A DNA stretch of 9,732 bases from a bacterium (lineage in GTDB: Bacteria > CSSED10-310 > JAJRTK01): NCBI GenBank assembly GCA_024278345.1, contig JAJRTK010000148.1, positions 1 to 9,732 of the forward strand, given 5' to 3'. The position numbers and the translations under genes are program-made. Shown piece by piece: positions 1-9,732 of this stretch (the stretch's first letter is position 1; the number at the start of each line of letters is the position of its first letter). Below the pieces are notes generated by a model. That model had not been told where the DNA came from and did no database searches. It saw only the letters and a program-made list of their open reading frames with translations.

Positions 1-126
1 CGGCCACGGTGCAGATTTCAGACGCCGCCCCAGGGCTTCCAGCCCTGGAACCCGGCGGAGGCTCTGCCTCCGGACCTCCGCTGGGAGCGCCGCTCCCAGA
101 CCCACGCCAGGGAGCCAGCTCCCTGG
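1..126 (+). repeat. Tandem multi-hairpin repeat element, copy 1
   Basis: Four GC-rich hairpins follow one another about every 26 bp. Hairpin 1 pairs 30-37 with 41-48 (CCAGGGCT/AGCCCTGG, loop TCC). Hairpin 2 pairs 56-62 with 66-72 (CGGAGGC/GCCTCCG, loop TCT). Hairpin 3 pairs 81-88 with 92-99 (CTGGGAGC/GCTCCCAG, loop GCC). Hairpin 4 pairs 107-114 with 119-126 (CCAGGGAG/CTCCCTGG, loop CCAG). The stems differ from unit to unit but every pair is Watson-Crick, and the linkers all resemble ACCC followed by a few bases. Positions 1-118 recur at 9615-9732 in the same orientation with three mismatches. The left boundary is unknown because the copy starts at the window edge. The element lies beyond the 3' end of the minus-strand acyl-CoA dehydrogenase gene. 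It has no convincing coding content. Confidence 0.9.
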
Positions 127-151
127 ACCCAATTTTTGTATTTTTTCTTCT
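107..151 (+). terminator. Candidate intrinsic terminator formed by hairpin 4 of the repeat
   Basis: The last hairpin of the element, an 8-bp perfect stem at 107-114/119-126, is followed after a short ACCCAA linker by two T-runs at about 131-146 (TTTTTGTATTTTTT). On the plus strand this resembles a Rho-independent terminator, which would serve a gene to the left of the window. The T-run begins about four bases after the stem, so the fit is good but not perfect. No gene inside the window would use it. Confidence 0.45.
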
Positions 152-211
152 GGTGGCCGAAACGATGACCAAGACCTCCGAGTCGGTTGAAAACCGCTTC
201 GAGGCAGCCTC

Positions 212-1909
212 TCAAGAAAGCTCGGCTACGGAGAGCGGCTCGTCCATGGCAAGGTGAGAAATCTCGTGGTGGGATTTTTTTGGAGGATCGAGCCTGATCC
301 CCGCGGCGGCGAGTCTTTTCGCCGCAAGGGCCGTTCGCCCATCATCCTCGTTTTCAATGGACCACTGGGCATGGCGAACCAGTAGCGCGAGCTGCATAGC
401 CCGGCCAAGAGCAAAGGCCAACTGGCGGGCACCCCTCTCCACGGAGGCACTGCCCAACGAGCTGGCGGCGGAGAACCATTCCTCCGCACGTTTCGCCCAA
501 TCCATGGCAACCCAAGCGGCATTCCCCAAGGCGGAGTGCGACGCCTGGCTCACAAGAGACCGGATTTCGCTCAGAAAAGGGATCAAAGCCTGTTCCTTAA
601 CAATGGCTCGAATCATGTCGAGAGCCAGAACATTCGTTGTTCCCTCCCAAATGGAAAAAACCTGTGCATCCCGGAGTAGCACGGGCAAACCTGTTTCTTC
701 CAGGTAGCCCGCGCCACCAAATGTTTCGAGGCACTCACTGGCCCCCGCCACGGCTTGCCGCCCGGTCAAAAGTTTGGCCACGGGCTGCAGCATGCGGAGA
801 ACCTTGCGTTTATCCTCTTCCAATGCGCCGATTTCATCGGCTCCCAACAATTCTGGAATTCTAAACGCCAGATGGAAGGCAGCTTCAAACTCCGTCTCCA
901 TCTCCGCCAACGTCTCGAGGTGAAGGGGTTGCTTGGCCAGCGTGTAGCCAAAAGCAAAACGCCGTCGGGCATAGTCCCGGCTCAACGCAATCCCTCTCCT
1001 GAGCGACGCCGTGGCACAAATGGAGTTCCAGGTTCTGGTGATATTCAAGAGCGGAGTGATATTTTTCACACCATTCTTGAGCTCGCCAATGGGTTCGGCC
1101 AAGGCGCCATCCAGATCCAGTTCCGCCGTGGGGAGCATCCGGGTGCCGAGCTTCTCCTTGAGGCGCCGTACAAGGATTCGATTCGGCGAGCCGTCGTTCA
1201 GAATTTTTTGCACAAGGAAAAGAGCGAGGCCTTTGCCTCCCGGCGGATTGCCATCCGGCCGGGCCAACGTCAACGCGACTTCAGAGGTCACGGCCGAAGT
1301 AAACCACTTGGTTCCATGGAGCCGCCACCCATCATTGGCGCGCCGGGCTGTGGTTTCAGAGAGTCCCACATCCGACCCGCCGGTCTTTTCGGTCATCCAC
1401 TGGCCGGCGGTCCAAGCGCGGGAAGGATCCCTTGAGAGCAGACGCGGAAGAATCCGTTCTTGAGTGTCTTCAAGGGCCGAAAGTGACAGGGTCTTGGCGG
1501 CGCCATCGGTCATGGCCAGGGGGCAAGTATAGGTATGAGAGGAACGGTCGAAAAGGTAGACTAGCGCAAACTGGTGAACCCGCGAATACCGGCCGTGGCG
1601 CTGCTCATAAGCCGTGGCCACCAAACCGTGCTTCACCGCGACCCGCGCAAACTCTTTCCATGCCTCCGGGAGCTTGATCTCGTCAATCCTACGTCCCCAA
1701 GGATCCCACTGCACGAGCTGTGGCTCCTCCTGGCGTGCTTCGTGACAAAGCTCCAGCAACGGGCCTCCAGCGAGTTCCCCCATTCTCTCCAAGCTGGGTA
1801 CGATATGAGAACGAACATAGTCGGGAATGACCCGGGCAAGGTAGCTCTGAAGAACGCGGTCTTCGAGATATTGGTTGCCAAGCCGTGGAGGATCCTGCAA
1901 AAAATCCAT
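212..1909 (-). CDS. AidB-like acyl-CoA dehydrogenase family protein
   Basis: This is a 565-residue flavoprotein of the acyl-CoA dehydrogenase superfamily, closest in pattern to the AidB branch (E. coli AidB is about 540 residues). Visible landmarks are WDPWGRRIDEI (68-78), which matches the AidB N-terminal domain; MTEKTGGSDVG (172-182), the branch-typical flavin-binding stretch; RLKEKLGTR (249-257); ETFGGAGYLEE (395-405); and FSIWEGTTNVLALD (418-431), whose Glu422 sits where acyl-CoA dehydrogenases carry the catalytic base. A C-terminal helical region follows to 565. In E. coli, AidB is induced by alkylation damage, binds DNA, and shows weak isovaleryl-CoA dehydrogenase activity. Other family members may simply oxidise acyl-CoAs, so the substrate is open. 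The start is firm: AGGAG lies 7 nt upstream, and a stop codon lies upstream in frame with no earlier ATG. The gene lies 160 bp downstream of recN on the same strand. Confidence 0.9.
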   Translation of the reverse strand: MDFLQDPPRLGNQYLEDRVLQSYLARVIPDYVRSHIVPSLERMGELAGGPLLELCHEARQEEPQLVQWDPWGRRIDEIKLPEAWKEFARVAVKHGLVATAYEQRHGRYSRVHQFALVYLFDRSSHTYTCPLAMTDGAAKTLSLSALEDTQERILPRLLSRDPSRAWTAGQWMTEKTGGSDVGLSETTARRANDGWRLHGTKWFTSAVTSEVALTLARPDGNPPGGKGLALFLVQKILNDGSPNRILVRRLKEKLGTRMLPTAELDLDGALAEPIGELKNGVKNITPLLNITRTWNSICATASLRRGIALSRDYARRRFAFGYTLAKQPLHLETLAEMETEFEAAFHLAFRIPELLGADEIGALEEDKRKVLRMLQPVAKLLTGRQAVAGASECLETFGGAGYLEETGLPVLLRDAQVFSIWEGTTNVLALDMIRAIVKEQALIPFLSEIRSLVSQASHSALGNAAWVAMDWAKRAEEWFSAASSLGSASVERGARQLAFALGRAMQLALLVRHAQWSIENEDDGRTALAAKRLAAAGIRLDPPKKSHHEISHLAMDEPLSVAELS

Positions 1910-1916
1910 CTTTCGA

Positions 1917-1921
1917 CTCCT
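1917..1921 (-). promoter_or_regulatory. Ribosome binding site of the acyl-CoA dehydrogenase gene
   Basis: On the minus strand, AGGAG is separated by 7 nt from the ATG at 1907-1909. This fixes the start, and it shows that the gene has its own translation initiation rather than depending on recN upstream. Confidence 0.75.
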
Positions 1922-2069
1922 CTTCTCAGGTGGAAGGACGACTTCCAGCCCAACTCCTCGCCGACTTGGGCTCGGACTTCACATCCATCATGCACCATGA
2001 ATCGCCCCAAGCCAAACGCCAGCCAACCGCGGCTCCCCAAGAAAGACTCGCGGCCAAGAACCCGTGCGA

Positions 2070-3794
2070 TCATGCCCCATCCATCTCTTCCCGGGGGAGA
2101 ACGGAATTTTGAACCCGGGGGGAGGTGCCAAGGAGCTCCCGGGCGAGCTGCAGGGTGCTGTCGGTGATGACGCGCCCGCCCAGCAATCGGGCGAGCTCCC
2201 GCTCCCTCCCGGCCCCGGTCACTTCTTTGGCCCGGGTCAAGGTGCGGCCGCCGAGGACCCGTTTCTCTACAACGACATGCCGTTCTCCCAGACTGGCGAT
2301 CTGGGGCAAATGGGTGATGCAGAGGATCTGGCGCTTGTCCGACAAGCGCAGGAGCTTTTCTCCCACGGTCCTGGCAACCCCTCCTCCGACGCCAGCATCA
2401 ACTTCGTCAAAGACCAAGCACGAAACCTCATCGACTTCGCTCATCAGGCTCTTGAGGGCTAACAGAACGCGGGAAATCTCGCCGCCGGACGCGATTTTGC
2501 TCAGGGGCTTGAGATCTTCTCCGGGGTTCGGGGAGATCAGGAATTCTATTCGTTCAAGGCCCTGTTCTCCGACTCCATCGCGGACTCGTTCCTGGGGAAT
2601 CGCCTCGATCCGAACATCGAAGCGAGTGCGAGCCATGGCGAGCTGGGCAAGCTCGGCCTCCACGGCCCCCCTCAGTTTCGCGGCAGCCCGCCTCCTCTGC
2701 GCGGAGAGCTTTTCCGCCGCGGATCGATAGACCGCTCGGGCGCCTTCCAGTTTTCTCGCCAGATCTTCCTTCGACAGAGCGCTCTCTTGGAGCTCCTCTC
2801 GCTCGGCCCTGGCAGATGCGAGATAACTCAGAAGCTCGGCATCGGTATCGCCATATTTCCTCCGCATTCTACGGATCAGAGTCAGCCGTTCGTCGAGATC
2901 CACCAGCTCGTCGGGATCGTATTCCGCTTCCGCCCCCAGGTCCCGAAGCCTTTCGCTGATATCCTCCAGCTCGACACGCACTTGAACGAGCCGCCCCACC
3001 AGCTCTCCAAACCGCACATCGGCTCCGGACAACCTGTCCAACTGTTGTTCCAGGAAACTCAGTTCTGAAATGAGGCAGTCTTCATTATCGTACAGAGTTT
3101 CGAAGCCGGCCCGGCATCCGGCCTGGATTTCCTCTGAACTCTGCAACAGCCCGCTCCGTTGTTCCAACCGCTCGGTTTCTCCTTCTTCCAGGGCCAGTGA
3201 CTCCAGCTCGGCAATCTGGTGCTCCAGCACATCGAGCCGCCGGAGCCGCTCGCGCTCGCCATTTTCCTGAGAACGGAGAGCCCGGGCGGCCAAAACTAGT
3301 ACCCGGTGGTTCCGGGCAACCGTTCTTCGTTGGCCCATGAGCTTGGCGAATCCATCGAGAAAATCAATATGCAAATCGGAGCTCAATAGGCTCTGTTGCT
3401 GGTGTTGTCCAACGATTTCCACCAGGTGCCGGCCGACGTGGGAGAGAACCGCTTGGGTCACCAATCGCCCATCCACGTAGCACCGGTTGGCTCGCCGGCG
3501 ACCGATGACCCGCCGCAACAGGAGTTCGTCGCCAATCCTTTCGACTCCCTCCACCTGGCTAAGCCTTTTTTTCGTCGCCGGCTCCAGCCGAAACAGTGCT
3601 TCGACCTCCGACTCTTCTTCCCCGGTCCGCACGTATTCACTCAAAGCCCGGCCTCCCACAACGAGGTGGAGGGCACGAACGAGAACCGATTTTCCGGCTC
3701 CTGTTTCACCGGAGAAGATGTTCAAACCCGGTCTCAGCTCGACGCTAAGCTCTGCGATGGTAGCCAGATTCCGGACTCTTAGAAAGCTCAACAT
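2070..3794 (-). CDS. recN: DNA repair protein RecN
   Basis: RecN is an SMC-like ATPase that binds DNA ends and holds DNA together during recombinational repair of double-strand breaks. At 574 residues it matches the usual family length (about 550-575). The N-terminal ATPase half opens with LRVRNLATI and carries Walker A GETGAGKS (29-36) and a GQHQQQSLL loop (129-137). A charged helical region of about 150-390 forms the short coiled-coil arm. The C-terminal half has the ABC signature ASGGEISR (435-442), Walker B CLVFDEVDAGVGG (459-471) and the ITHLPQIA switch with His495. All key residues are intact. The start matches the usual family N-terminus (ML..L.V.NLA), although no strong Shine-Dalgarno sequence precedes it. 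The gene lies between yajQ (332 bp upstream) and the AidB-like gene (160 bp downstream). recN is often SOS-controlled, but I see no recognisable LexA box upstream. Confidence 0.97.
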   Translation of the reverse strand: MLSFLRVRNLATIAELSVELRPGLNIFSGETGAGKSVLVRALHLVVGGRALSEYVRTGEEESEVEALFRLEPATKKRLSQVEGVERIGDELLLRRVIGRRRANRCYVDGRLVTQAVLSHVGRHLVEIVGQHQQQSLLSSDLHIDFLDGFAKLMGQRRTVARNHRVLVLAARALRSQENGERERLRRLDVLEHQIAELESLALEEGETERLEQRSGLLQSSEEIQAGCRAGFETLYDNEDCLISELSFLEQQLDRLSGADVRFGELVGRLVQVRVELEDISERLRDLGAEAEYDPDELVDLDERLTLIRRMRRKYGDTDAELLSYLASARAEREELQESALSKEDLARKLEGARAVYRSAAEKLSAQRRRAAAKLRGAVEAELAQLAMARTRFDVRIEAIPQERVRDGVGEQGLERIEFLISPNPGEDLKPLSKIASGGEISRVLLALKSLMSEVDEVSCLVFDEVDAGVGGGVARTVGEKLLRLSDKRQILCITHLPQIASLGERHVVVEKRVLGGRTLTRAKEVTGAGRERELARLLGGRVITDSTLQLARELLGTSPRVQNSVLPREEMDGA

Positions 3795-3830
3795 ATCAAC
3801 CCAAGCCCCGTTGGTCTCGAATGATCGCCC

Positions 3831-3848
3831 CGCCGCCAGGAAGCGGCG
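3831..3848 (-). other. GC-rich hairpin in the recN leader
   Basis: A 6-bp perfect stem (CGCCGC/GCGGCG) with a 6-nt loop lies 37 to 54 nt upstream of the recN start. No T-run follows it on the minus strand, so it is not a standard terminator. It could be a leader structure or chance in GC-rich DNA. Confidence 0.35.
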
Positions 3849-3996
3849 CGAAGGTATGCCTTACAATTGCCTGCTTCTTCCTATATGGCATTCCGAGAGA
3901 AAAAAAGCAAGGGCTCTAGAAGATCAACGAAGGGGTGGAAATCAGGGGCTGAGGCCCTCCTACAAACCCGCCATCGACCGAGGCGTGGAATCAAGG

Positions 3997-4017
3997 CCAT
4001 GGGTATCGGGCCCATGG
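3997..4017 (-). other. CCATGGG/CCCATGG hairpin downstream of yajQ
   Basis: A perfect 7-bp inverted repeat with a 7-nt loop lies about 110 bp beyond the yajQ stop codon. It could help define the yajQ mRNA 3' end, but no T-run follows on the minus strand, so Rho-independent termination is not supported. Confidence 0.35.
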
Positions 4018-4126
4018 GGAGAGAGGAGGCGGACAGCGCGCAACGGACGTGAGCGATGGGAGCGGAGTACAACCCAAAGGAAGATGGGAGACAAACGTTT
4101 GGGGAGTTGTGCATTCAGACCCGGCG

Positions 4127-4624
4127 TCAATTCCGGTAATTGGTGAACTGCATGTGAATCCCGAGGTCCGAATCTTTGATGGCGCGAATGGCATCCTGCA
4201 AATCATCCCGTTTCTTGCCCGAAACCCGGACGGAATCTTCAAGAATCTGGGCCTGTAGCTTGAGCTTGAGCTTTTTTATCAACTTGACGATTTCCTTTGC
4301 TTTTTCCATGGGAATTCCTCGTTGCATGGAGATGCGTTGCCGGACGCGGCCGCCAGCAGCTCTCTCGGCGTCACCGCGAGTCATGGCCTCCAAGGGGACT
4401 TTGCGGCGGGCCAGCTTTGTGGCCAGGATCTCATCCACGGCACGGAGCTTCACTTCGTCCGGTGCCACAAGGACCAGGGCATCGGGCTCGATCTGGATCT
4501 CGCAACCGGTCCCCTTGAGGTCGAAGCGAGTCCGCAACTCATGGGTCGCTTGGTTGACGGCATTCTTGACCTCCTGGTCATCGATACGCGAAACAACGTC
4601 GAAACTGGATTGTTTTTTTGCCAT
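4127..4624 (-). CDS. yajQ: YajQ family (DUF520) nucleotide-binding protein
   Basis: This small cytosolic protein of 165 residues fits the YajQ family (about 160-165). The landmarks are the N-terminal SFDVVSRID (7-15) followed by EVKNAVNQA (18-26), RFDLKGT (33-39), EKAKEIVKLIKKLKLKLQAQ (107-126), VSGKKRDDLQ (134-143) and the C-terminal HMQFTNYR (157-164). Family members have two ferredoxin-like domains and bind nucleotides. Some, such as the Xanthomonas homologue, act as cyclic di-GMP effectors, but the role in this organism is unknown. I placed the start at 4624, not at the upstream in-frame ATG at 4720. The downstream start has AGGAG 7 nt ahead and gives the family-typical N-terminus, while the 32 extra residues look untranslated. 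The gene is first in the minus-strand block and divergent from the nucleoside transporter. Confidence 0.95.
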   Translation of the reverse strand: MAKKQSSFDVVSRIDDQEVKNAVNQATHELRTRFDLKGTGCEIQIEPDALVLVAPDEVKLRAVDEILATKLARRKVPLEAMTRGDAERAAGGRVRQRISMQRGIPMEKAKEIVKLIKKLKLKLQAQILEDSVRVSGKKRDDLQDAIRAIKDSDLGIHMQFTNYRN

Positions 4625-4631
4625 TTTCTGA

Positions 4632-4636
4632 CTCCT
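4632..4636 (-). promoter_or_regulatory. Ribosome binding site that decides the yajQ start
   Basis: On the minus strand, AGGAG lies 7 nt before the ATG at 4622-4624. The upstream in-frame ATG at 4718-4720 has no comparable site, so the shorter protein is preferred. Confidence 0.75.
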
Positions 4637-4907
4637 GCAAGGGTTTGAAAAGCGTGGAAAACAAGAGAACGGTGGCGAGGCCCAGGCCGAATCACGCCGA
4701 AAGAACGAAACGAGTCCCATGAGCGCTCACTACACGGTTTCTCACCAAACTGCTATAGGGAGAAGGTCACTCTTGCGCCCATGAGCCCCACTTGAGCTTG
4801 AGACGATTTACTCCATTCAACGGATCGTTCGTCAACTGTTGGGCAAAAACTGGCTCATGCTCCCCTAATTTTCCACAGACTCAGGCCGCGCTGCACCAGA
4901 TCGCATG

Positions 4908-4930
4908 CCGTTGGCACGTGAACGGTTTTT
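4908..4930 (+). terminator. Weak terminator-like hairpin in the transporter leader
   Basis: CCGTT (4908-4912) pairs with AACGG (4921-4925) across an 8-nt loop containing CACGTG, and five T's follow directly. The stem is short. It lies about 55 nt before the transporter start, so it could attenuate the operon's leader transcript or be chance. Confidence 0.25.
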
Positions 4931-4976
4931 CTGCACCTTTGTTGGGAAAGGCGGCCCAAAGTAGATTCCAGACGTT

Positions 4977-4981
4977 GGAGG
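4977..4981 (+). promoter_or_regulatory. Ribosome binding site that decides the transporter start
   Basis: GGAGG lies 5 nt before the ATG at 4987. That ATG opens a normal signal-like N-terminus, whereas the upstream ATG at 4792 has no such site. Confidence 0.7.
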
Positions 4982-4986
4982 TACCC

Positions 4987-6573
4987 ATGCGGACGCTGTG
5001 GTCTTTGTTAATGCGGCGATTGTGCCCCCTTGCAGCCCTGTTGGTGGCCGCGCAGATCTTTGCCCTCTCAGCTTGGTCCCAACCGCCCGAAAAGGTGACG
5101 CCGGTTGCCGAGACGAGTGGCACCGAGGTCCTGGAAAAAGCTGACCGGCTTCCTGGCCCGCCGACCCACGGCGCAAACGAAGCAGCACCGCTGGAGGTAA
5201 GTGCTCCCGAGGAGGCCCCGAAAACGTCGGCGAATTCGGAGGGTAGTTCCCAGTCGTCTTCGGCTGAAAGTGTTGACGCTTCCCCCCCGCGAGACGCGGC
5301 GGAGGCCATGGCCAAGCTGCGCTTGAACGCGAAGCCCACAACGCTTCTTGATCGGCTGATGTCCCTGTTGGGTCTAGTGGCCATGGTGGCCATTGCGTGG
5401 CTGCTTTCCGCCAATCGAAGCCGGGTCGATCTGCGGCTAGTGGTTGTGGGAGTCAGTCTCCAACTGGTCTTTGGGATCCTTGTGCTGAAGACGGCTCCGG
5501 GAGAATGGCTCTTTTCCCAGCTCAATACTTTGTTTACGGCGATTTTGGGATTCACTGACACCGGAGCCGAGTTCATCTTTGGAGAGACATTCGGCGATCA
5601 TTTTTTTGCCTTTAAGGTGCTCCCGACAATCATCTTTTTCTCTTCCTTGATGACACTCCTTTATCACGTGGGCGTCATGCAGCATCTTGTGAACTTCATG
5701 GCTGTCGTCATGCAGAAGACGATGGGAACGTCCGGCTCGGAGTCCCTGTCGGCGGCGGCGAACATTTTCGTGGGCCAGACGGAAGCGCCCCTGGTGGTGA
5801 AACCATACGTGGCCACGATGACGAACTCTGAACTCATGGCCATCATGACCGGTGGGTTCGCGACAGTCGCGGGCGGGGTTTTGGCTGCTTACGTGGGCAT
5901 GCTTCAGGACTTTTTCCCTGATATCGCGGGGCATCTGCTGGCGGCGAGCGTCATGAGCGCGCCGGCCGCCCTTGTCATTGCAAAAGTGATGCTGCCGGAA
6001 ACGGAACAGTCCCTGACGAGGGGAGATGTGAAAATGAACATCGAGCGGCCGGACGTCAATGTCATCGATGCTGCGGCTAGGGGCGCTGGAGAGGGAATGA
6101 CCCTGGCCCTCAACGTGGGCGCCATACTCCTGGCTTTTCTGGCTCTGGTGGCCATGGCCAACTGGATTCTTGGTGGACTGGGGGCTTTCGTTGGCTGGGA
6201 GAACCTCAGCTTGGAGTTGATTTTCGGATATCTATTCTGGCCCGTGGCCTGGATCATGGGAATACCCGCCAGCGATTGCATGGTCGCCGGACGCCTCTTG
6301 GGGGAAAAGATGGTGCTCAACGAGTTCGTCGCGTACCTGGACTTGGCCCATCTGCTCCGCACCGGCGGCGAGCTCTCCTATCGGTCGGTGGTGATTTTGA
6401 CGTATGCTCTTTGTGGATTCGCCAATTTTGGTTCCATTGCGATCCAGCTCGGCGGAATCGGGGGCATCGCGCCATCACGGCGCCACGACCTTGCCAGGCT
6501 GGGGCTGCGGGCCATGATCGGGGGCACCATCGCCGCATTCATGACGGCCACTGTTGCCGGGCTCCTGATATGA
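4987..6573 (+). CDS. Concentrative nucleoside transporter (CNT/NupC family) with N-terminal extension
   Basis: This inner-membrane symporter imports nucleosides using a sodium or proton gradient. The protein has 528 residues; bacterial CNTs usually have about 400-425. The conserved core spans roughly 175-528: ESLSAAANIFVGQTEAPLVV (252-271) with the family's GQTEAP nucleoside-binding motif, GFANFGSIAIQLGG (477-490) followed by GIGGIAPSRR (490-499), and a final transmembrane helix at 509-528. Predicted helices before the core lie at about 123-141 and 149-168. The extra length is N-terminal: a signal-like segment (basic MRTLWSLLMRR, then a hydrophobic stretch to about 29) and an 80-90 residue Pro/Ala/Ser/Glu-rich, low-complexity stretch (33-115), probably periplasmic. 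It begins a likely three-gene operon, with 28 bp to the next gene. Which ion and which nucleosides it uses cannot be told here. Confidence 0.92.
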   Translation: MRTLWSLLMRRLCPLAALLVAAQIFALSAWSQPPEKVTPVAETSGTEVLEKADRLPGPPTHGANEAAPLEVSAPEEAPKTSANSEGSSQSSSAESVDASPPRDAAEAMAKLRLNAKPTTLLDRLMSLLGLVAMVAIAWLLSANRSRVDLRLVVVGVSLQLVFGILVLKTAPGEWLFSQLNTLFTAILGFTDTGAEFIFGETFGDHFFAFKVLPTIIFFSSLMTLLYHVGVMQHLVNFMAVVMQKTMGTSGSESLSAAANIFVGQTEAPLVVKPYVATMTNSELMAIMTGGFATVAGGVLAAYVGMLQDFFPDIAGHLLAASVMSAPAALVIAKVMLPETEQSLTRGDVKMNIERPDVNVIDAAARGAGEGMTLALNVGAILLAFLALVAMANWILGGLGAFVGWENLSLELIFGYLFWPVAWIMGIPASDCMVAGRLLGEKMVLNEFVAYLDLAHLLRTGGELSYRSVVILTYALCGFANFGSIAIQLGGIGGIAPSRRHDLARLGLRAMIGGTIAAFMTATVAGLLI

Positions 6574-6586
6574 GCCGATTGCAAAA

Positions 6587-6594
6587 AAGGAGGT
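6587..6594 (+). promoter_or_regulatory. Near-perfect Shine-Dalgarno sequence for the beta-helix gene
   Basis: AAGGAGGT lies 7 nt before the ATG at 6602, in the 28-bp gap after the transporter stop codon. It is the strongest ribosome binding site in the window. It is the main argument for a start at 6602, although the first 68 codons do not look like an ordinary signal peptide. Confidence 0.8.
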
Positions 6595-6601
6595 ATTTCC
6601 C

Positions 6602-8644
6602 ATGATGCTGTTTTCTCCAAAGCAATGGACGAGATTCGCCCCGAAGCGGCCTGGTGAAACGCTTCGCGGACGCGGTTTCAGCTTGTCGCTCTCTTTCTTT
6701 TGGGGAGCGTTCCGTTCGCGGCGGCGGCAGTCCGTCCGCCGCCACTCCCCCCTTCCGCCCACCGGGACCAAGCTGCTGACCCTCAAAGCAGCTCGACACC
6801 CCAAATTCTATCTCTTTTCTCTTTTTGCAATCGCTCTACTTTTTCCGAATTTGGCGGAATCGAAGAACTGCGAGACCTTCGCCTGTAACCAGGGGTTCTG
6901 CCCCAACGTCACGGCGAATCCGGGCCAGTTCGAGTTCGGGACGATCCAGGAAGCGATCCTTGAAATGAACCCCTTTGCTCCGGATCTACCCACGCACTGC
7001 ATTCTGTTAGTGCCCGATGGAGCCAACGATCTGGTGATACAAGAGTCACTTGACCTTCCGATCCAGACGCCTCCAGAACACCCTCAACCAGGTGAGTGGT
7101 TCTACAAAGTTCGAATCGAAGCCCTCCAGGATGCGACCCACACCGGGAAAGTGATCTGGATGCCCGCCGCGGGTCAAGGAAGAACCATCACGATGACGTC
7201 CTGTGAAAACGACATCACTCAGTGCTCTGGCCAGGCCATCGCCAGTGAGCTCTATGTGGAAGGTGTCACCTTCACCGGAGGCCGGGTGCCCACCGTGGAA
7301 GGTTCAGTAGCCCGAGTTTTCCGCTCCAAGCTCACGGTTGTCGATTCGGTGTTCGAAGACAACGTTGCCGGCTGCGGCGGGGCCATCGCCGTCTTTGGGA
7401 AGCACGACTTCTTCGTAGGCACCATCGTAACCTTGGAAGGGATCGTCGATGTTACCGGATCCACTTTCAACTCCAATTATGCTTGCCAGGGCGGAGCACT
7501 CTACGTCGCTGGCGGTGCATCAGCCAACATCGCGAACTCCGTCTTCAACAATAACCAGGCCGAAGCTGGAGGCTCCATCTTCGTGGGAGCGGGAATCTCC
7601 ACGAACCAGTGGACGTCTGGTGTCACAGTCGTCGATTCCACATTCACTGGAGGCGACACAAATATCGATGACGCGCCAATCCCCAACGCATCAACCCATT
7701 GCCAAGATGCCGTCGATCTCGATCCCAACCTCCCGGGTCTCTGCAACAACTTTTCTGGTTACGCAGTCAACGACTTGGCTGCGGCGGAGCTCGGTGGAAA
7801 CGGGGCCGCGATTCAGGTCCATGGCACTTTCTCCGGGAACCGCCTCAAACTCCACGGCAACACGGCCACGGGGACGGGAGGCGCAGTTTATCAAATGGAC
7901 TACCGCGGGCTGACCGCTTTCCAGCTGACCAACAGCTTCGTTGTGGACAACAACGCCGCCGGAACACCTTCAGGCGATGGCATCTATATCGACGTTCCCC
8001 TTTCGAGAAATCCGGACGATACCCCACCAACGGGGTCCACAGGCGCCCGAGCCATCGCGGATGCCTTGCTCTGGAACGTCACCATCGCGGGAAATGGGGG
8101 GGAAGGGTTGTGGATTGGGAGTGGGATCCTTCGGGACCTCAAGAACCTTCTTCTTTGGAAAAACGGAGTAGACCTTGTGGGCCCACTGGCCAGTGAATGC
8201 GACGGTTGCATCATCGAAAACGTCTCCCCCACCAACGATCCGCTCTTCGTGGGTAACGGTGATTACCATCTTTCCACCCCTCAATCGCCGGCCAAGGAAG
8301 CTGGAACAAGCGCGGTTCTGACACCGATTCCAGCGATTGGGACTTTGGATTTCACGCTGGACGTCGATGGGGATCCGCGAGTCACCGACGCCCTTATCGA
8401 CATCGGCGCCGATGAATACACTTTGCCCACAGCAACGCCGACGCCGACGATCACTCCGACGCCCACCGTTACCTCGACGGTTGTGCCCTCGGCAACAGCC
8501 ACCCCCACTCCTACAAGCGGAGCCGTACCAGCACAACCAGAGGGCGACTCGGCGGCGGGCATCATGCTGCTCCTGGGGCTCATGCTGGTTTTCGTTCTGA
8601 CTTTCCGCGGCAAAACCCAGGCAAAACCGTCAACCCAAACTTGA
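6602..8644 (+). CDS. Surface-anchored right-handed beta-helix protein, choice-of-anchor Q-like
   Basis: A 680-residue secreted protein of unknown function. A hydrophobic segment at about 69-83 (FYLFSLFAIALLFPNLAES) looks like a signal core, but 68 Arg-rich residues precede it, which is unusual. From about 110 to 540, rungs typical of right-handed beta-helices recur: VVDSVFEDN-GCGGAIAV (247-264), GSTFNSN-CQGGALYVAGG (286-305), ANSVFNNN-EAGGSIFVGAG (311-331), LKLHGN-GTGGAVYQ (416-431). The end, NDPLFVGNGDYHLS (545-558) through LDVDGDPR to IDIGADEY (599-606), fits the choice-of-anchor Q pattern. A Thr/Pro linker (609-640), a transmembrane helix (651-668) and a short basic tail follow. Twelve cysteines after the signal suggest disulfides in an extracytoplasmic protein. 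The beta-helix could bind polysaccharide or act as an adhesin; no catalytic residues are evident. Spacing suggests co-transcription with both neighbours. Confidence 0.85.
   Translation: MMLFSPKQWTRFAPKRPGETLRGRGFSLSLSFFWGAFRSRRRQSVRRHSPLPPTGTKLLTLKAARHPKFYLFSLFAIALLFPNLAESKNCETFACNQGFCPNVTANPGQFEFGTIQEAILEMNPFAPDLPTHCILLVPDGANDLVIQESLDLPIQTPPEHPQPGEWFYKVRIEALQDATHTGKVIWMPAAGQGRTITMTSCENDITQCSGQAIASELYVEGVTFTGGRVPTVEGSVARVFRSKLTVVDSVFEDNVAGCGGAIAVFGKHDFFVGTIVTLEGIVDVTGSTFNSNYACQGGALYVAGGASANIANSVFNNNQAEAGGSIFVGAGISTNQWTSGVTVVDSTFTGGDTNIDDAPIPNASTHCQDAVDLDPNLPGLCNNFSGYAVNDLAAAELGGNGAAIQVHGTFSGNRLKLHGNTATGTGGAVYQMDYRGLTAFQLTNSFVVDNNAAGTPSGDGIYIDVPLSRNPDDTPPTGSTGARAIADALLWNVTIAGNGGEGLWIGSGILRDLKNLLLWKNGVDLVGPLASECDGCIIENVSPTNDPLFVGNGDYHLSTPQSPAKEAGTSAVLTPIPAIGTLDFTLDVDGDPRVTDALIDIGADEYTLPTATPTPTITPTPTVTSTVVPSATATPTPTSGAVPAQPEGDSAAGIMLLLGLMLVFVLTFRGKTQAKPSTQT
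6655..6793 (+). other. Three consecutive hairpins inside the 5' end of the beta-helix gene
   Basis: Hairpin A pairs TGAAAC (6655-6660) with GTTTCA (6675-6680), extended by two more pairs across a one-base bulge. Hairpin B is an 8-bp perfect GC stem, GGCGGCGG (6720-6727) with CCGCCGCC (6736-6743), enclosed by a second stem, GGGGAG (6702-6707) with CTCCCC (6745-6750). Hairpin C pairs AGCTGCT (6771-6777) with AGCAGCT (6787-6793). They fall exactly in the stretch where the translated N-terminus looks least protein-like, before the hydrophobic signal core. Confidence 0.6.
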
Positions 8645-8658
8645 AAAAAGACCGTTGA

Positions 8659-9576
8659 ATGAGCTTTGACTCCGCTCCGGAGCTTCCGGAATTCATTTCA
8701 AGGAAATACGCCTTCGACCGCCACGTTTACACCCTGGGAAAGGGCCTCCACCAAGGACGACGGGTCCACTTCGTCGATCACGGCGAGAAAACCGGGCAGC
8801 CCGTGTTGCTCCTGCACGGAAATCCAACTTGGAGTTATCTGTGGCGCAAGGTGATCTCCCTCCTGCCCTTTGATCGTTTTCGGTGTATTGCCCCTGATCT
8901 GCTGGGGTTTGGCCTTTCGGACAAGCTCCCGGAGGTTTCTGATCATAGTCTGGTGGGGCATGTAGAGGCAGTTGCCGAGCTGGTCACGCGGTTGGATCTG
9001 AAGGACTTTATCCTTGTCGGCCAAGATTGGGGCGGCCCCGTAATCACAAGCGTTGGTGCGCGGCTCCAGAACCAGGCGGCAGGGGTGGTCCTTGCCAACA
9101 CGGCGGTCGTTCTTCCGGCACGCCCCCGGGGCACGACATTCCATCGCCTCTCCCGTCTCCCGCTCATGAGTGACCTTCTCTTCCGGGTCTTTGGGTTTCC
9201 CCTTTGGGCACTCCATCGGGCACAGGGGGACCGGGGGAGTATGGAAGGGGATGTGCGCCGCGCCTATTGGTGGCCACTCAGACGCTTGAGGGATCGGGCT
9301 GGACCGCTGGCCATGGCCCGTATGGTTCCCGACAACCTGGAGCATCCAAGCATTCCGGAGCTCCGGAGGGGAGAGCAGTGGCTCAAAGAGTTCCAGGGAC
9401 CACTGAAGCTGGTCTGGGGAGAAAGAGACCCAATCCTTGGACGAGCGCTCCGCCGTCATCTTCGGGAATTTCCTCATGCTTCCGTGACCAAAACCCAGGC
9501 GGGTCACTTCCTTCAAGAAGAAGTTCCGGAATCCCTTGCTGCCGCAATACAGGCCGTGGCTGATTCCAGGTTGTGA
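8659..9576 (+). CDS. Haloalkane dehalogenase-like alpha/beta hydrolase
   Basis: A 305-residue alpha/beta-fold hydrolase with the haloalkane dehalogenase active-site layout. HGNPTWSYLWR (53-63) gives the oxyanion/halide-binding Asn55. VGQDWGG (120-126) gives the nucleophile Asp123 with halide-stabilising Trp124. WGERDPILG (253-261) gives the acid Asp257 after strand beta-7, and AGHFLQEE (281-288) gives the base His283. The cap domain spans about 155-240. An Asp-His-Asp triad with an Asn-Trp halide pair is the pattern known for subfamily III. That group overlaps OleB beta-lactone decarboxylases of olefin synthesis, which are often annotated as dehalogenases. No oleA, oleC or oleD lies nearby, so I cannot choose. 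Lacking a signal peptide, it is probably cytoplasmic. The start lies 14 nt after the beta-helix stop; no strong ribosome binding site is seen, so it may be translated by coupling. Confidence 0.85.
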   Translation: MSFDSAPELPEFISRKYAFDRHVYTLGKGLHQGRRVHFVDHGEKTGQPVLLLHGNPTWSYLWRKVISLLPFDRFRCIAPDLLGFGLSDKLPEVSDHSLVGHVEAVAELVTRLDLKDFILVGQDWGGPVITSVGARLQNQAAGVVLANTAVVLPARPRGTTFHRLSRLPLMSDLLFRVFGFPLWALHRAQGDRGSMEGDVRRAYWWPLRRLRDRAGPLAMARMVPDNLEHPSIPELRRGEQWLKEFQGPLKLVWGERDPILGRALRRHLREFPHASVTKTQAGHFLQEEVPESLAAAIQAVADSRL

Positions 9577-9614
9577 AACTCATGAGGGGCACGATTCGGC
9601 CTCGGTCATGGTAC

Positions 9615-9732
9615 CGGCCACGGTTCAGATTTCAGACGCCGCCCCGGGGCTTCCAGCCCTGGAACCCGGCGGAGGCTCCGCCTCCGGACCTCCGCTGGGA
9701 GCGCCGCTCCCAGACCCACGCCAGGGAGCCAG
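9615..9732 (+). repeat. Tandem multi-hairpin repeat element, copy 2 (cut by the window end)
   Basis: This copy aligns without gaps to positions 1-118, with 115 of 118 bases identical. The differences are at 9625 (T for G, outside the hairpins), 9646 (G for A, turning an A-T pair of hairpin 1 into a G.U wobble) and 9679 (C for T, in the loop of hairpin 2). Hairpins 1 to 3 are complete and hairpin 4 is cut at its loop. The element starts 38 bp after the hydrolase stop codon, at the 3' end of the plus-strand operon, where it could act as a transcript-end structure. Confidence 0.9.

What the first reader, a model, noticed from the sequence alone, without database searches (positions are those of the whole stretch)
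1..126. Tandem array of hairpins with diverged stems but preserved pairing
The four units share a period of about 26 bp, an ACCC-like linker and a 2-4 nt loop, yet each stem has a different sequence and all pairs are intact. Divergence with restored pairing implies compensatory change. That points to selection on, or a copying mechanism that depends on, the folded DNA or RNA. Similar GC-rich hairpin-plus-ACCC strings occur in other bacterial genomes, but I know of no agreed function.
Basis: partly seen in the sequence, partly recalled or inferred. Interest (0 to 1): 0.7.

Follow-up and report, generated by a model that had tools for sequence, protein, structure and literature searches.

The report
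Hairpin-filled miniature transposon (MITE family)
The string of hairpins is the inside of a 201-base non-coding jumping element, present in roughly a hundred or more near-identical copies in this one bacterial genome; it is a richly structured new example of a known kind (MITEs) whose hairpins also serve as the landing site of a second mobile element, a group II intron.

Summary
The four hairpins are real, but they are the interior of a mobile element. The window is one whole contig of a 6.06-Mb draft genome, and both its ends break inside copies of the same repeat. Complete copies are 201 bp, with 24-bp terminal inverted repeats (GGCCTCGGTCATGGTACCGGCCAC) and 8-9-bp target-site duplications at many unrelated sites. 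One copy splits an ISL3 transposase gene. The genome holds 178 matches to one hairpin core and 233 repeat ends (about 115 copies or more). This is a MITE family. A second family (B), with unrelated ends but the same 8-bp duplications, shares the same hairpin modules, so the interior is modular, as in streptococcal BOX elements. Stems are conserved: private substitutions are about 7-fold rarer than in loops. True covariation is modest (1 pair in A, 3 in B, nearly all next to the loop). Seven of eight copies of a group II intron sit exactly after the fourth hairpin, in both families. The mobilising transposase was not found; the ends weakly resemble ISL3. No copy was found in about 390 other genomes. 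Verdict: new variant of a known kind.

The parts
1..176 (+). Family A element, left copy (reference positions 18-201); left end cut off by the contig start
   Evidence: blastn to the 201-bp reference, 89% over 1-176
1..7 (+). Remnant of the left terminal inverted repeat (CGGCCAC)
   Evidence: alignment to the complete copies
30..48 (+). Hairpin H1, CCAGGGCT-TCC-AGCCCTGG
   Evidence: sequence; loop-closing pair covaries T-A/C-G between copies
56..72 (+). Hairpin H2, CGGAGGC-TCT-GCCTCCG
   Evidence: sequence; counts
81..99 (+). Hairpin H3, CTGGGAGC-GCC-GCTCCCAG, followed by ACCC
   Evidence: sequence; core found 178 times in the genome with at most 3 mismatches, control 0
107..126 (+). Hairpin H4, CCAGGGAGC-CA-GCTCCCTGG, followed by ACCC; shared with family B; insertion point of the group II intron in other copies is just after the following AC
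127..152 (+). Region that in complete copies holds hairpin H5 plus a T-run (GCGCTGCGCGCTTTTTT); H5 is lost here
   Evidence: comparison with complete copies; terminator-like site in L003
153..176 (-). Right terminal inverted repeat, older variant (GGTCTTGGTCATCGTTTCGGCCAC on the minus strand)
   Evidence: 1 mismatch to the variant pattern GGCCTYGKYCATCGTTTCGGCCAC
9598..9732 (+). Family A element, right copy, same orientation, cut at the contig end within H4
   Evidence: blastn 97.8% to reference 1-135
9598..9621 (+). Left terminal inverted repeat of the right copy, GGCCTCGGTCATGGTACCGGCCAC
   Evidence: exact match
9644..9713 (+). Hairpins H1-H3 of the right copy (9644-9662, 9670-9686, 9695-9713)
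   Evidence: sequence, alignment

Best explanation
The array is the interior of a miniature inverted-repeat transposable element (family A, 201 bp, non-coding). SHOWN: complete copies carry 24-bp inverted ends and are flanked by 8-9-bp target duplications at many unrelated sites; one copy splits an ISL3 transposase gene; copies fall into a young, near-identical subfamily and older diverged ones. A second family (B), with unrelated ends (GGGTATCCACGCAAGGCGGGAC) and also 8-bp duplications, shares the H4/H5 modules and a variant H4 module. INFERRED: a DDE transposase acting in trans recognises only the ends and moves the element; an ISL3-type enzyme is the best lead. The hairpin interior is not needed to explain mobility but is kept folded. 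The most likely reason is that the string, read into from either side, forms a stable 3'-end or terminating RNA fold that limits harm from insertions next to genes, helped by hairpin-assisted mispairing (template switching or recombination) that perfects stems and swaps modules. The same hairpins then serve as landing site for a group II intron.
For: Ends: 115 forward + 118 reverse matches to the 24-mer with at most 3 mismatches, backwards control 0. Complete copies with TSDs: CAGGTTTG, GTTTTCTG, GTTCAAGCG, GAACCTCC, AAAAAAAG, CTTTCAGC, GAAGGATC; GTTGAGTT, GTCCCAACC; CTAGCGAG, GATTTAAC, CAAGAAGTA, GGGCTCGGT, TTTCTACTC. Interrupted ISL3 gene at C5: PF01610 profile positions 53-161, element, then 161-235, with TSD GTTCAAGCG. 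Family B TSDs GGATATCC, ACACAGGC, GCGGAACG, CCAGTCGG, TCGTCCCG. Shared modules across A and B. Private substitutions in 52 young copies: stem 11/3223, linker 16/1584, loop 15/613; stem against the rest p = 6e-6. Covariation above all 500 shuffles. ISL3 end GGCTCTTCGCCATCTTTGAGGCC resembles older A ends, about 0.4% of shuffles as good. Loss of exactly one 27-bp hairpin unit in C58.
Against: No autonomous element bearing the A or B ends was found; the draft is 88% complete and breaks at exactly these repeats. Four of the first eleven complete A copies scanned show no TSD, explained by recombination or chimeric assembly but not proven. The proposed role of the fold is inferred: there is no strand bias relative to neighbouring genes, only H5 has a T-run, and there are no expression data. 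The stem-versus-rest difference is weaker when only 14 complete copies are used (p = 0.027).
Confidence: 0.85

Rival explanations
1. REP/BIME-like repeats: the hairpins with their ACCC (GGGT on the other strand) tag are moved one or two at a time by a REP-associated tyrosine transposase (RAYT).
For: Short GC-rich hairpins with a conserved tetranucleotide beside them resemble tagged REPs (PMC3733652). One weak Y1_Tnp match exists in the genome.
Against: The moving unit is the whole 201-bp element with inverted ends and 8-9-bp duplications, which single-strand tyrosine transposases do not make (general knowledge). The single Y1_Tnp match is below the family cut-off (21.5 against 23 bits), and the gene carries a different, GTAG-tagged hairpin.
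Confidence: 0.04
2. The stems are kept paired by mutation bias alone: replication template switching inside each hairpin copies one arm onto the other, so changes appear on both sides in one step without selection.
For: All but one of the two-sided changes are at loop-closing pairs and the exception lies next to one, where arm-to-arm correction is easiest. Private stem changes are rare.
Against: Linkers, which do not pair, are as conserved between subfamilies as stems (3 of 36 against 9 of 72 columns with two common letters), which arm correction does not explain. Private stem changes in single copies are uncorrected.
Confidence: 0.3
3. The arrays are host regulatory elements: transcription terminators or 3' mRNA-stabilising structures that are selected at each locus.
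For: Both window copies lie just 3' of genes (22 and 36 bp). H5 plus T-run is terminator-like. The RNA fold is very stable.
Against: Genes run into the H1 end and the H5 end equally often (15 against 16 for family A). The young copies are near-identical repeats that also hit a gene. H1-H4 lack T-runs.
Confidence: 0.12
4. The hairpin string is an assembly or contamination artefact.
For: The window copies are at contig ends; 28% of the contig ends examined lie in A or B elements.
Against: Many complete copies lie inside contigs with distinct flanks and target duplications.
Confidence: 0.01

Closest known systems
BOX elements of Streptococcus pneumoniae and S. suis (PMC3049150)
   Same: Short, high-copy, non-coding repeats with MITE features; end modules around a tandem string of structured internal modules that vary in number and are predicted to fold independently. 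In S. suis two different end families enclose the same kind of internal module, as A and B do here.
   Different: No sequence relation was tested with a BOX profile. Here the ends are long perfect inverted repeats with clear 8-9-bp duplications, and the internal hairpins differ from one another rather than being copies of one boxB.
Prokaryotic MITEs with structured interiors (Correia/NEMIS, ERIC, RUP, Nezha)
   Same: Inverted ends, target duplications, under 300 bp, no transposase, up to hundreds of copies, strong folding.
   Different: Most fold into one long hairpin (general knowledge); here five separate short hairpins in a string lie inside the terminal stem. The partner transposase is not identified.
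REPs/BIMEs (GTAG- and CGTC-tagged palindromes, PMC3733652) and RAYTs
   Same: GC-rich hairpins of 7-9 bp with a conserved short tag, in clusters.
   Different: Tag is ACCC/GGGT, not GTAG or CGTC; the mobile unit is a TIR-bounded 201-bp element; the only RAYT-like gene carries a different hairpin.
Targets of class C group II introns (PMC8919778, PMC3240598)
   Same: Seven of eight intron 5' ends in this genome lie directly after hairpin H4 and the eighth after another array hairpin, like class C introns that insert after terminator-type hairpins where the stem matters but the loop does not.
   Different: The target here is a hairpin inside transposable elements and has no T-run. The intron class was not established (Rfam group-II-D1D4-3 at E = 0.03, below cut-off; RT fragment matches TIGR04416).

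Membership tests
MITE (non-autonomous TIR element) | Terminal inverted repeats | tested here: met
   24-bp perfect TIRs in complete copies; 233 end matches, control 0
MITE (non-autonomous TIR element) | Target-site duplication on insertion | tested here: met
   8-9 bp in 14 listed family A copies and 5 family B copies; interrupted ISL3 gene
MITE (non-autonomous TIR element) | Short, non-coding, many copies | tested here: met
   201 bp; no transposase inside; 178 core matches
MITE (non-autonomous TIR element) | Ends shared with an autonomous transposon of the same genome | tested here: inconclusive
   No autonomous copy found. Pfam profiles searched: ISL3, IS1595, IS256, IS4-type. The end of the one ISL3 copy resembles older A ends (about 0.4% of shuffles as good); the ISAs1 and IS1595 loci do not carry A ends around the gene
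BOX element | Distinct end modules around a variable number of internal modules | tested here: met
   Two end families share H4/H5 and a variant H4; a 174-bp copy lacks one hairpin unit
BOX element | Sequence homology to boxA, boxB or boxC | not tested
   BOX profiles were not available; the host is of an unrelated, sparsely sampled phylum
REP/BIME with RAYT | GTAG or CGTC tag beside the hairpin | tested here: not met
   Linkers read ACCC; definition from PMC3733652
REP/BIME with RAYT | RAYT (Y1 transposase) linked to the repeats | tested here: not met
   One sub-threshold Y1_Tnp hit, linked to a different GTAG-type hairpin
Known RNA family | Match to an Rfam covariance model | tested here: not met
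   No Rfam match above gathering score in the window or in 5 other loci
ISL3-derived MITE | 8-bp target duplication and GG-starting ends like those of the ISL3 copy in the genome | tested here: inconclusive
   TSD 8-9 bp observed; end similarity 0.4% by shuffling for older variants, none for the young variant; that ISL3 elements make 8-bp duplications is from general knowledge

The most novel reading that the evidence does not exclude
The short GC-rich hairpins plus ACCC are themselves exchangeable genetic modules. They move between transposon families with unrelated ends, insert into one another's loops, and gain or lose whole units by a hairpin-dependent copying process, possibly involving the group II intron reverse transcriptase that homes exactly to hairpin H4. 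The transposons are only their vehicles.
Probability: 0.12. Interest if true: 0.75.

Novelty: new variant of a known kind. Interest (0 to 1): 0.45.

Why it matters
It gives a concrete identity to one of the unexplained strings of GC-rich hairpins in bacterial genomes: in this genome they are modular interiors of transposable elements. Two families with different ends share the same hairpins, the hairpins are at least as conserved as the ends, and a group II intron uses one of them as its landing site. That makes it testable whether the folded interior is needed for transposition, for keeping insertions harmless, or is merely a mutational by-product. It also explains about a quarter of the contig breaks examined in this assembly.

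Tried and rejected
Rfam on the window and on five loci: nothing above gathering score. Scan of named genomes for an 18-mer of the end: only chance hits in genes. Distant search in plasmids: none. The 201-bp element in 98 genomes including 7 of the same phylum: only the own genome. The 77-bp hairpin core in 386 genomes: four weak hits; the sequences looked at are ordinary GC-rich coding-type DNA and none shows a hairpin array. RAYT origin rejected. IS256 absent. IS4-type search found only an ISAs1 fragment whose end does not match. IS1595 copies are not enclosed by the ends. Pairs of A ends enclosing a transposase-sized interior: none in 30 loci around older ends nor in 0.86 Mb. Strand bias relative to genes: none (gene calling there was crude). 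Laying the whole genome in the Python box was not available, so about 0.86 Mb plus single loci were read instead.

Full report
WHAT IS THERE. The window is a complete contig (C68) of a 6.06-Mb, 550-contig draft genome. They fold better than shuffled sequence (z = -4.0). The same array starts again near the other end of the contig (9598-9732, same orientation). Searching the genome gave 178 matches to the third hairpin with at most 3 mismatches and none for the reversed control. About 28% of the 144 contig ends examined fall in such elements: the repeat breaks the assembly.

THE UNIT IS A TRANSPOSABLE ELEMENT. Aligning copies showed constant outer boundaries. The complete unit is 201 bp: a 24-bp end GGCCTCGGTCATGGTACCGGCCAC, a 22-bp spacer, hairpins H1-H4, hairpin H5 with a T-run, and the same 24 bases inverted. 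The end occurs 115 + 118 times at up to 3 mismatches, control 0, so there are about 115 copies or more. Complete copies are flanked by 8-9-bp direct duplications at unrelated sites. One copy interrupts an ISL3 transposase gene: the Pfam profile aligns up to position 161, stops at the element, and resumes at 161 after it, with duplication GTTCAAGCG. The copies form a young subfamily (96-100% identical) and older ones with ends such as GGCCTTGGTCATCGTTTCGGCCAC, GGCCTCGTCCATCGTTTCGGCCAC and GGCTCCGTCCATCGTTTCGGCCAC. The window's left copy has an older-type right end at 153-176 and has lost H5.

A SECOND FAMILY SHARES THE HAIRPINS. Family B has unrelated ends (GGGTATCCACGCAAGGCGGGAC) but also 8-bp duplications. 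It shares H4 and H5 with A, next to its own hairpins (GGGGAC...GTCCCC and GCAGGGC...GCCCTGC). A variant of H4 (CCCGTTGCAACGAAGGGCAACGGG) occurs in complete A and complete B elements. One copy (C58) lacks exactly one 27-bp hairpin unit. In C133 a B element sits inside H1 of an A element. The interior is therefore modular. This resembles BOX elements, where in S. suis two end families enclose the same internal modules (PMC3049150).

IS THE PAIRING SELECTED? The proper comparison is between copies. In 52 young copies private substitutions are 11/3223 in stems, 16/1584 in linkers, 15/613 in loops, 12/864 in the left spacer and 13/1671 in the ends; stem against loop, linker and flanks p = 6e-6. Using only 14 complete copies the trend holds but is weaker (8/1008 in stems against 9/196 in loops; stem against the rest p = 0.027). 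Between copies, H1 has one two-sided change (T-A to C-G, 7 of 23 sequences) and family B three such pairs; observed covariation exceeds all 500 shuffles in both alignments. But these are few events, almost all at the loop-closing pair, and single stem mutations in individual copies are left uncorrected. So pairing is maintained, by selection, by arm-to-arm correction during replication, or both; the data do not separate these. The linkers are also highly conserved between subfamilies, which correction alone does not explain.

A GROUP II INTRON USES H4. After H4 in three copies the sequence changes to a group II intron 5' region (Rfam group-II-D1D4-3, E = 0.03, below cut-off) followed by a reverse transcriptase fragment (TIGR04416). 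A search for the intron start found 8 copies. Seven lie directly after CTCCCTGGAC of H4, four in family A and three in family B interiors, with different loops; the eighth lies after another array hairpin. This matches class C introns, which insert after hairpins by stem rather than loop (PMC3240598; PMC8919778). The class itself was not established here.

WHICH TRANSPOSASE. None was found with these ends. IS256 is absent. IS1595 copies are not enclosed by the ends. The only IS4-type hit is a truncated ISAs1 gene with a different end. The ISL3 copy's right end resembles older A ends better than about 99.6% of shuffles, so ISL3 is a lead only.

MECHANISM AND ROLE. Shown: mobility as a TIR/TSD unit and modular interior. 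Inferred: movement in trans by a DDE transposase. The role of the hairpins is not shown. A terminator role for host genes is not supported by orientation (15 against 16 for genes running toward family A elements), though that gene calling was crude. My preferred reading is a protective RNA fold plus mispairing-driven stem correction and module exchange.

DISTRIBUTION. No copy was found in 98 genomes with the whole element, seven of them of the same phylum, or in 386 with the hairpin core beyond short chance-like matches. The host's name is not known to me.

LIMITS. Contig-end copies may be assembly consensus. The assembly is 88% complete. Only about 0.86 Mb plus single loci were read in full. 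There are no expression data.

Noticed in passing
L217-L224 (C38, C78, C128, C225, C249, C357, C488, C369): All eight copies of a group II intron 5' end lie directly after a hairpin of these arrays, seven of them at the identical position after H4 (CTCCCTGGAC^GTRCG), in both transposon families.
   Followed up: yes
L039 1201-1740 (C390): A RAYT/Y1-transposase-like gene with two copies of a different hairpin (GGCGGGTTCGGAACCCGCCCCTAC, GTAG on the other strand) inside its reading frame.
   Followed up: no
L075, L035, L133 (C38), L142 (C47): Some family A ends carry an inserted hairpin inside the 24-bp inverted repeat (CATCGGTGGTGCCTTCGGCAGCTCTCGCTGTCGCTCGGACC); the motif GAGCGNNAGCGAG recurs in several such inserts.
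   Followed up: no
L072 (C133), L200 (C247): Nested insertions: a family B element inside H1 of a family A element, and an A element inside a B element.
   Followed up: partly
L179 (C322) about 1079-2090: An IS1595-type transposase ORF flanked by a 22-bp inverted repeat (19 of 22 matching) unrelated to the family A ends.
   Followed up: no
window 6602-8644: A 680-aa ORF without a Pfam match, with a threonine/proline-rich stretch and a C-terminal hydrophobic segment (probable surface protein).
   Followed up: no
window 212-9576: Other genes: AidB-like acyl-CoA dehydrogenase (212-1909 -), RecN/SMC-like AAA protein (2070-3794 -), YajQ/DUF520 (4127-4720 -), NupC-type nucleoside transporter (4792-6573 +), alpha/beta hydrolase (8659-9576 +).
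   Followed up: partly
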